Part shown: in pieces, positions 14,943 to 17,342 of the stretch
Position numbering within the stretch: the stretch's first letter is position 1
Layout of the letters: the number at the start of each line of letters is the position of its first letter
Assembly: GCA_039704465.1 (NCBI GenBank)
Contig: JASFAU010000004.1
Span: 1,488,001-1,552,000, forward strand
Direction of reading: 5' to 3'
DNA from: Plasmodiophora brassicae
Lineage: Eukaryota; Endomyxa; Phytomyxea; Plasmodiophorida; Plasmodiophoridae
DNA length: 64,000 nt
Notes under the pieces: model-generated
Databases searched by the model: none
What the model was told of the DNA's origin: nothing
The model's input: the letters and a program-made list of their open reading frames with translations, nothing else
Translations under genes and position numbers: made by a program

Positions 14943-17342
14943 TCACGGAACCGACAGCAACGGGCCGCTAAGCACTGCAAGGACGTGGTCGGTCAGATAG
15001 ATTCGGATGATCTCGACGATAAGGACGCCGGCGAACGCGAACGGCAGCGGTTTCAGGTCCCGCTGGAACAGGGGCGCGATCAGGACGCAGGCACAGAACG
15101 CGCCGATGATTGAGCCCAGGCCAAGCGCCAGCGCGCTGACCGTGGACTCCGGGATCGACTGCAGCAGGGCGTACCAGATGAAATCGAAGAGCCGCATCTG
15201 GACATCGCCGACCTGGTACGTCAGTTTGGGGATCCAGTCGGTCGGCGCGGACAACACTGGACGCGTATGCACCGGGTCGACATGCTCGTCATCGTCTTCG
15301 TCCCGGAAATGCATGGCTGGGTTGTGGAGCTCCATATCCGGGCCGTCGGGATGGTCGTCGGATCGCAGCAGGGTGTACAGCGGCAGGGCGACGTGTCTGC
15401 GAGGCACGACCTGCGCGTACAGGTCGATCCCGACCGGCATCAGCAGCAGGATCAGGATCAGGATCCGGTTCAGTGTCAGCAGCATGATGATGGCCATCAG
15501 CATGTTCAGGCCCGCCATACTGCATCGCCGGTACCCGGCCGGTACGCCGCGAAAGTAGATGCCGATGATGCCGGCGGCGCCCGCATTGAAGACGAACAGG
15601 CACAGGGAGATGACGTCGATGGGAATGCCGATGACCTCGGAGACGAGGACGACGGCTAGGCCGCCGCCCGTGATGAAGATCATGAAGAAGTCCAGGGCCA
15701 GGACGCGACGCAGGACACTGATGCACTGGTCACGATACCGACGCAGCAGCAACCCGATGATGGCCACGATAACGACGATGATGATGATGAACACGATGAG
15801 CTGAGTCGGTTGCACCGACTGGTCGCGACTCTGCGACACGGCTGCTGACGCGGATCCCTGCCACACAGACGCGATGTAAGACGTCAAATCGAGTCGCAGC
15901 GCCGAACCGGGCCCCGCACCTGTGCTGTCGTGCCCGCCAGGACGCCGGAGAACCACGACACGACCAGCATACCGAGGAACAGGGGAAGGACAACGCTGTG
16001 CGCCAGCGACCAGACGGCCAGGCACACCTCCACGATCAGCTGGCCGTGTGCACCTCGCAGAATGTATCCCCGATCGGAGCGCACGACGACGTCCCCGTCG
16101 ACGCGTGTCACGAGCGCCCGGGAATGGCCGCGTTCGCCACGTGCCCGCCTCAGCAGGGCCCGCACGTCGTCCTCGTCGCCGAGCGGCACGCGTCCGACTT
16201 CGCAGAGCGACCTGGGCAGATTGCGCACGTCGCAGAGCGGCGGCACCGTCTCCTGCGAACCCCTGAACTTGTCGATGGCGGCGGCGTCGGCCAGGGCGAC
16301 CCAGCACGACGGGTCGCGCAGCACGCGCCGATCGTGGCACGTCCTGCAGCGGACGGCGTCGAACATGGACTCGATGTCGAACATGCGCGTGCAATTCATG
16401 CACTGGCCCAGGCGCCCGTCGATGATGTCCGATTCGAGGTCCGAATGTGCAACGCACGAGTAGACGGCGCGGTCGGGCAGGTTCCCATGGCGGCCGGCAA
16501 GGCCGTTGCCGAAGATCAGCTGGCCGTGCACGGCGCCCCAGCAGGCGCGGCCGTTGAAGTTGGGCCCGCCTGCTGCGACACGGCACTGGAAGGGTTGACC
16601 GTCCAGGTCCCGTCCCGTAATCGCACAGTAATACAGTTGCAGCAGGCCGAACGTCAGCCTGGGAGCGATCTCCCTCAACGACTCGACGATGAACGGGATG
16701 GCCGATGCCGAGCAGCACCCGTACACGTCGAGGACGTCGAGGGACGGCACGTCGAACACGAACTGGCGCAGCTGGGCGAACTGGCGCGGGCGCTCGAAAT
16801 GCATCTGCCGGCACCGGATCATGGTCAGGGCGCGCAGCTGACGACACGACCGGGCGATGACGGGCAGGACGCCGGCGTCCACCGCGGCGCAGTCGTCGAG
16901 GTGGATCGATTTCAGGTGGGCGAATCGCGCGTTCGACAGTAACCGGTCGACGAGGAGTGTATGCACTGCAGGCGAGCGCGTGTTAGTGAACGTGTTTGCA
17001 GGCAGACGCGACACGGGTGCGCGCACCGTTGAATCTGAACGGGTACAGGTCGACGACGTCCCACAGGTAGGGCGAGTAGACCGTGTTCTGCCATGCCGAG
17101 CAGACGCGCGCGAGGCGTACGAGATCGGAAATGGTGAGGAACGAGAACACATGCCAGAAGACGTCCTCGGGGTAGGCGGTCCCGAACCCGAAGCGGATAA
17201 CGGGCGCGGCGGCGGCGTCGACGACGACGGCGACGGGCCCGGTCTCGACGGCGGTGTCGCGCGGGTCCGGCATCAGCAGGCGCTGCTTCTCGTCCGCGTT
17301 GACGACCGTCGCGCCGGCGCGCTTCGATGCGTGTGATCCCAT
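14943..17342 (-). CDS. F-box/LRR protein fused to a presenilin-like aspartyl protease domain, 758 aa
   Basis: Exons 17342..17027, 16965..15920 and 15857..14943 join in frame (introns 61 and 62 nt); the total is 759 codons. F-box about 58-105 (PEDVFWHVFSFLTISDLVRL), then LRR-like repeats (about 115-225), a segment with two CxxC pairs at 294-297 and 312-315, then TM1 (SVVLPLFLGMLVVSWFSG, about 426-443). The rest aligns along presenilin: TM2; TM4 (IDVISLCLFVFNAGAAGIIG); TM6 with Asp599 (VGIDLYAQVV); a short acidic loop (80 residues between the two Asp, against 128 in human presenilin-1); TM7 with Asp679 (MRLFDFIWYA); and LKPLPF for the PALP box. GxGD is RLFD. The upstream frame start is TTG; ATG 17342 is the first usable one. 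The presenilin and F-box calls are each strong; that both are in one mRNA rests on the open frame and the introns. Confidence 0.8.

What the first reader, a model, noticed from the sequence alone, without database searches (positions are those of the whole stretch)
14943..17342. One gene joins F-box, LRRs and a complete presenilin-like domain
Seen: three exons join in frame. The middle exon runs without a stop from the LRRs through two CxxC pairs into a helix that aligns with presenilin TM1, and the last exon supplies TM2-TM9 with the two membrane aspartates and a PALP-like box. Known: presenilins are stand-alone cores of gamma-secretase, and F-box/LRR proteins are SCF substrate receptors. Inference: an F-box receptor tethered to an intramembrane protease could couple ubiquitination to regulated cleavage. 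I know of no such architecture.
Basis: partly seen in the sequence, partly recalled or inferred. Interest (0 to 1): 0.92.

Follow-up and report, generated by a model that had tools for sequence, protein, structure and literature searches.

The report
F-box protein fused to altered presenilin
The clubroot parasite's only detectable presenilin, a relative of the cutting core of gamma-secretase, is fused to an F-box protein-tagging module and has lost parts of its protease signature, so it may mark membrane proteins for destruction instead of cutting them.

Summary
The fusion is real. Three exons (17342-17027, 16965-15920, 15857-14943, minus strand) encode 758 aa with an F-box (Pfam 38.3 bits) and a presenilin domain (39.2 bits), both over curated cut-offs. 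A protein identical at 754 of 758 positions is in databases from Plasmodiophora brassicae. It is the only presenilin detected in the genome, which also encodes nicastrin, Aph-1, two SPP-family loci and Skp1. PEN-2 was not found, inconclusively.

The 120 listed plant presenilins and the parasite's two SPP-family loci keep both motifs. 'Complete' is too strong: TM1 is not supported by sequence, the TM6 aspartate and TM9 only by collinearity.

I favour a membrane-anchored SCF adaptor on a catalytically impaired presenilin over a coupled protease-ligase. Function is inferred; no transcript or assay was seen, and no second fusion was found.

The parts
14943..17342 (-). whole gene (coding part), 3 exons, 758 aa
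   Evidence: a 758-aa P. brassicae protein identical at 754 of 758 residues is in databases
17027..17342 (-). exon 1: N-terminal tail and F-box
17058..17171 (-). F-box (residues 58-95)
   Evidence: Pfam PF12937 38.3 bits, PF00646 29.8 bits; found again in the whole-genome scan
16966..17026 (-). intron 1, 61 nt, GT-AG, phase 1, with a CTAAC
   Evidence: sequence
15920..16965 (-). exon 2: LRR-like region, CxxC pairs, linker, first hydrophobic helix
   Evidence: besides itself only hits with E >= 0.017 in the genome
16622..16936 (-). LRR_CC-like region (about residues 116-220, limits drawn by eye)
   Evidence: phmmer to FBXL2 (6o60_C) over residues 57-159, E 2.5e-10, further weak repeats; no Pfam LRR hit
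16337..16402 (-). two CxxC pairs (294-297, 312-315), zinc-ribbon-like
   Evidence: Pfam zinc ribbon only at 8.3-10.7 bits, below the cut-off of 24
16076..16117 (-). predicted beta hairpin (residues 389-402) just before the membrane domain
   Evidence: in both AlphaFold2 models, low to moderate confidence
15923..16045 (-). first hydrophobic helix (within residues 413-453), TM1 by position
   Evidence: hydropathy, helix in model; homology to presenilin TM1 not significant
15858..15919 (-). intron 2, 62 nt, GT-AG, phase 0; unspliced, the frame would stop at 15884
14943..15857 (-). exon 3: rest of the presenilin domain (TM2 to TM9)
   Evidence: Pfam PF01080 40.8 bits for this exon alone; human presenilin-1 E 1.1e-6
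15408..15821 (-). TM2-TM6 core (residues 467-604)
   Evidence: the significant parts of the Pfam, PDB and plant-HMM matches fall here
15423..15425 (-). Asp 599, TM6 aspartate (aligned with PSEN1 D257)
   Evidence: phmmer and HMM alignments; block test not significant (253 of 1000); MAFFT places it elsewhere
15183..15194 (-). RLFD 676-679, at the place of GxGD; Asp 679 aligned with PSEN1 D385
   Evidence: best-scoring place in the whole protein, 29.4 against 13.5 for the next; 0 of 1000 shuffles as good within 10 residues, 10 of 1000 anywhere; MAFFT agrees in 120 of 120
15042..15053 (-). KPLP 723-726, at the place of PALP
   Evidence: phmmer, HMM and MAFFT agree on the register; block test 189 of 1000, third-best place

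Best explanation
A single gene encodes a membrane-anchored F-box protein. The cytosolic N-terminal half (F-box, LRR-like region, CxxC pairs) would bind Skp1 and recruit an SCF ubiquitin ligase. The C-terminal half is a presenilin homologue, the only one detected in the genome, which probably still sits with nicastrin and Aph-1 and captures single-pass membrane proteins, but whose active site is impaired. Captured proteins would be ubiquitinated on their cytosolic side and sent to degradation instead of, or far more than, being cut. Shown here: the exon structure in the DNA, both domain matches, the changed GxGD and PAL positions, and the presence of nicastrin, Aph-1 and Skp1 genes. Inferred: splicing, the cytosolic orientation (from known presenilin topology), Skp1 binding, complex assembly, loss of protease activity, and the substrates.
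For: Both Pfam domains over cut-off in one frame. Same 758-aa fusion in the database record. No Met between 306 and 438. Sole presenilin hit in the genome by Pfam model at E<=0.001 and by a plant presenilin query at E<=10. Nicastrin 91.8 bits, Aph-1 41.2 bits, both over cut-off and partial matches. Three Skp1 loci. GxGD to RLFD with the TM7 Asp kept and PALP to KPLP, against 120 of 120 listed plant presenilins with GLGD[FY] and PALP. The organism's two SPP-family loci keep GFGD or GLGD and QPALLY, so the change is not general in its aspartyl intramembrane proteases. Motif mutants are inactive in PSEN1 (PMC2647162). No PEN-2 detected by three searches plus a motif pattern; a 2009 survey says PEN2 is considered necessary for presenilin to acquire proteolysis (PMC2770060, passages). 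The presenilin N-terminus is cytosolic (recalled).
Against: Both aspartates appear to be kept, which a decaying active site need not do. An archaeal homologue works with PPL instead of PAL, and G-to-A there only slows it (PMC2947513). Failure to find PEN-2 shows little, as the searches had no positive control. The TM9 register is weak. The 120 plant sequences are the best-scoring 120 of 3363 hits to a plant query, so motif conservation was not sampled in protists. A title cited in the review says the first PALP proline is needed for complex formation too, which would argue against a stable complex here. The AlphaFold2 models are poor (mean pLDDT 48.6 and 40.1) and cannot show the active-site geometry. 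No evidence of Skp1 binding.
Confidence: 0.42

Rival explanations
1. An active fused protease-ligase: the presenilin part still cuts with the two aspartates in a relaxed motif, and the F-box part ubiquitinates substrates or released fragments.
For: TM7 Asp firmly aligned. TM6 Asp aligned by HMM and phmmer. Nicastrin and Aph-1 kept. An archaeal homologue tolerates PPL for PAL.
Against: Both GxGD glycines replaced (by Arg and Phe), PAL starts with Lys. G384, P433, A434 and L435 matter in PSEN1. PEN-2 not found, inconclusively.
Confidence: 0.28
2. The F-box half regulates the presenilin itself: it makes the complex autoubiquitinate and turn over at a life-cycle stage, or it is an otherwise inert cytosolic tail acquired by gene fusion.
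For: Only one fusion found, so a lineage-specific accident is possible.
Against: The F-box keeps a good match (38.3 bits), and there is no stop or frameshift in either of the two sequences compared.
Confidence: 0.2
3. Two neighbouring genes, an F-box/LRR gene and a presenilin gene, wrongly joined by prediction.
For: No transcript was examined. Without splicing of intron 2 the F-box frame ends at 15884, which would give an F-box protein with one membrane helix.
Against: Exon 2 is open throughout and there is no Met between 306 and 438. Codon-position pattern unbroken. The same fused model is in the database for a sequence that differs at 4 residues. Introns of typical length.
Confidence: 0.07

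Closest known systems
Presenilins (MEROPS A22A, PF01080), such as PSEN1 and plant presenilin-like At1g08700
   Same: TM2-TM6 by Pfam, PDB sequence search and plant HMM; TM7 segment with its Asp; a loop of about 66 residues between TM6 and TM7 (helix ends at 609 and 677)
   Different: F-box/LRR/CxxC N-terminal half, GxGD to RLFD, PALP to KPLP, 19-25% identical to 48 plant presenilins in the alignment
FBXL (F-box/LRR) SCF receptors, such as FBXL2, FBXL17, SKP2
   Same: F-box followed by LRR_CC-like repeats (FBXL2 E 2.5e-10). FBXL2 is itself held at membranes by a lipid tail (recalled)
   Different: repeat region without a Pfam LRR match, then CxxC pairs and a multi-pass presenilin domain
Signal peptide peptidase family (SPP/SPPL, PF04258)
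   Same: same superfamily of diaspartyl intramembrane proteases; two loci in this genome
   Different: the parasite's two SPP-family loci keep intact GxGD and PAL motifs; this protein does not
Rhomboid pseudoproteases iRhom and Derlin (as a way of working only)
   Same: an intramembrane protease fold that lost its catalytic motif and works through ER quality control (iRhom: PMC3149277, title and abstract start in search listing; Derlin recalled)
   Different: unrelated fold; the ligase-recruiting part is in the same chain here

Membership tests
Presenilin (PF01080) by homology | Pfam match over the curated cut-off | tested here: met
   39.2 bits against 34.3; exon 3 alone 40.8
Presenilin (PF01080) by homology | nine transmembrane helices | tested here: inconclusive
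   hydropathy peaks cover TM1-TM6, TM8 and TM9, with TM3/TM4 and TM5/TM6 running together; TM7 stays under the threshold. The model has eight helices from 411 on, TM5 and TM6 as one (561-609) and TM7 short (677-687)
GxGD-type diaspartyl protease | TM7 catalytic aspartate | tested here: met
   D679; block 29.4 against 13.5 for the next place, 0 of 1000 shuffles as good within 10 residues, 10 of 1000 anywhere
GxGD-type diaspartyl protease | TM6 catalytic aspartate in a YD motif | tested here: inconclusive
   ID (598-599) aligned with YD by HMM and phmmer, not by MAFFT; block test 253 of 1000
GxGD-type diaspartyl protease | GxGD motif | tested here: not met
   RLFD 676-679; GLGD in 120 of 120 listed plant presenilins
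GxGD-type diaspartyl protease | PAL motif | tested here: not met
   KPLP 723-726; PALP in 120 of 120 listed plant presenilins; register weak on its own
GxGD-type diaspartyl protease | intramembrane cleavage | not testable with these tools
   needs an assay
F-box protein | F-box domain over the curated cut-off | tested here: met
   PF12937 38.3 bits (cut-off 24.3), PF00646 29.8 (cut-off 20.5)
F-box protein | Skp1 and SCF binding | not testable with these tools
   Skp1 genes are present at three loci
FBXL subfamily | leucine-rich repeats after the F-box | tested here: inconclusive
   FBXL2 match over 57-159, no Pfam LRR match
gamma-secretase complex | nicastrin and Aph-1 in the genome | tested here: met
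   91.8 bits on C8 (profile 2-188 of 218), 41.2 bits on C12 (104-223 of 231), both over cut-off
gamma-secretase complex | PEN-2 in the genome | tested here: inconclusive
   none found by Pfam model, plant query, human query or motif pattern, without a positive control

The most novel reading that the evidence does not exclude
P. brassicae has turned its gamma-secretase into a membrane-embedded ubiquitin-ligase adaptor. Its only presenilin lost the GxGD and PAL signatures, PEN-2 is gone (not shown, only not found), nicastrin and Aph-1 remain as substrate receptor and scaffold, and a fused F-box directs captured membrane proteins to SCF. This would be a natural pseudo-gamma-secretase, with Arg 676 and Lys 723 perhaps neutralising the two buried aspartates.
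Probability: 0.3. Interest if true: 0.85.

Novelty: new variant of a known kind. Interest (0 to 1): 0.66.

Why it matters
[quoted passage not shown] The same survey describes the catalytic motifs as conserved at the eukaryotic scale. An organism whose only detectable presenilin lacks these motifs, keeps nicastrin and Aph-1, and joins it to an F-box would be a natural test case. It would also suggest what the non-proteolytic job is: handing membrane proteins to ubiquitin-dependent degradation.

Tried and rejected
Rejected: assembly or prediction artefact (same fused protein, 754 of 758 residues, in another sequence). Rejected: hydrophobicity alone explains the presenilin match (2000 shuffles within 20-residue stretches reach at most 10.3 bits against 29.1; the PDB search of exon 3 hit only presenilins at E<=1; at E<=10 one further, unrelated hit with E 1). 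Not supported: recent copy of a stand-alone F-box/LRR gene (besides itself exon 2 had only hits with E >= 0.017; 22 other F-box matches were listed in the genome, but not compared one by one).

Full report
What is there. The gene lies on the minus strand at 14943-17342. Three exons (17342-17027, 16965-15920, 15857-14943) join through GT-AG introns of 61 and 62 nt into 758 codons and a stop. A P. [quoted passage not shown] The window belongs to a 25.3-Mb genome in 21 contigs. The match to a database protein named as Plasmodiophora brassicae (P0001, 758 aa, 99% identical) identifies the organism, the clubroot parasite of the Rhizaria.

Is it one gene? P0001 has the same length and differs at four residues, L109R, P179S, S527F and I532V. 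Its cluster holds five member sequences on two contigs and carries both F-box and presenilin domains. I do not know whether transcripts support that model. In the window, exon 2 is open throughout, there is no Met between residues 306 and 438, and in all nine segments tested GC is highest at codon position 3 and lowest at position 2. A stand-alone presenilin would have to start inside or above the CxxC region, or within TM1.

N-terminal half. The F-box (58-95) is over the Pfam cut-off. Residues 57-159 match FBXL2 at E 2.5e-10, with FBXL17 and SKP2 next, so an FBXL-type receptor is the nearest relative with a solved structure. No Pfam LRR model was listed at E<=10. Two CxxC pairs follow, with only sub-threshold zinc-ribbon scores. 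Both AlphaFold2 models place a beta hairpin at 389-402, just before the membrane part.

Membrane half. Pfam Presenilin matches at 39.2 bits over 429-601. At E<=1 the PDB sequence search of exon 3 hits presenilins only, 7 of 7 (best E 1.1e-6); at E<=10 one further, unrelated hit appears (E 1). A profile of the 120 plant presenilins scores the C-terminal part at 29.1 bits; the best of 2000 shuffles within 20-residue stretches is 10.3. The support is uneven. TM2-TM6 is strong. The TM7 block with its aspartate (VQMRLFDFIWYALLQSI against IKLGLGDFIFYSVLVGR) is the best place in the whole protein (29.4 against 13.5), with 0 of 1000 shuffles as good within ten residues and 10 of 1000 anywhere. TM7-TM9 together are weakly significant (67 of 5000). 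The TM6 aspartate (253 of 1000) and the TM9 box (189 of 1000) rest on collinear alignments. TM1 is not supported by sequence (819 of 1000).

The signature motifs. GxGD reads RLFD, so both glycines are gone, and PALP reads KPLP. All 120 listed plant presenilins have GLGD followed by F or Y, and PALP. They are the best-scoring 120 of 3363 hits to a plant query, so this sample is narrow. A second control is internal: the parasite's two SPP-family loci have GFGD and QPALLY (C1) and GLGD and QPALLY (C11). A review reports that G384 is required for PSEN1 endoproteolysis and activity and that P433L, A434D and L435R abolish activity, apparently without blocking complex formation, although a paper title it cites says the first proline is needed for that too (PMC2647162, passages). 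The archaeal MCMJR1 works with PPL, and its G219A mutant is only slower (PMC2947513, passages). The balance favours an impaired protease but does not prove one.

The rest of the complex. The genome has nicastrin (91.8 bits) and Aph-1 (41.2 bits), both over cut-off. No other presenilin answers the Pfam model at E<=0.001 or a plant query at E<=10. PEN-2 did not answer its Pfam model, a plant query, a human query or a motif pattern, none of which had a positive control. [quoted passage not shown]

How it probably works. By presenilin topology (recalled) the N-terminus faces the cytosol, which would put the F-box where Skp1 and Cul1 are; Skp1 genes are present at three loci. The likeliest mechanism is a membrane-anchored SCF adaptor whose presenilin part binds membrane-protein stubs with nicastrin and Aph-1 but cuts poorly or not at all, comparable in logic to rhomboid pseudoproteases that work through ER quality control (iRhom, PMC3149277, title and abstract start seen in listing). 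The observation that the two retained aspartates are matched by two new basic residues at the motif positions is suggestive only.

Novelty. Seven library searches for this fusion, for P. brassicae with F-box, or for presenilin or gamma-secretase in plasmodiophorids and Rhizaria listed no paper on the fusion (listings only, showing 20 of 92, 20 of 175 and 10 of 6630). The domain pair is already annotated on the database record, so the protein is catalogued though, as far as these searches show, not discussed. Among the 120 listed presenilins none carries a second Pfam domain. It is a new variant that combines two known kinds.

Noticed in passing
window 13670-14731, minus strand: Next ORF downstream on the same strand: protein kinase (Pfam Pkinase 146.4 bits) with a hydrophobic N-terminal stretch, seen by eye, that could be a signal peptide.
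   Followed up: partly
window 12276-13004, minus strand: ORF with a hydrophobic N-terminus and a C2H2-like finger near its end (18.3 bits, below the cut-off).
   Followed up: partly
window 18855-19112, minus strand: Short ORF with an EF-hand-like loop (19.2 bits, below the cut-off).
   Followed up: partly
P0001 (database record of this protein): One source labels the protein '(mitochondrion)' although its longest contig is 1.68 Mb; very likely a labelling error.
   Followed up: no
L008 (C1), L009 and L010 (C11): P. brassicae has two SPP-family loci; both keep GxGD and PAL. The C11 match is in two pieces about 55 bp apart, one with a TAA inside, which looks like short introns.
   Followed up: partly
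window 16076-16117, minus strand: Beta hairpin predicted in both models just before the membrane domain; not searched by itself.
   Followed up: no
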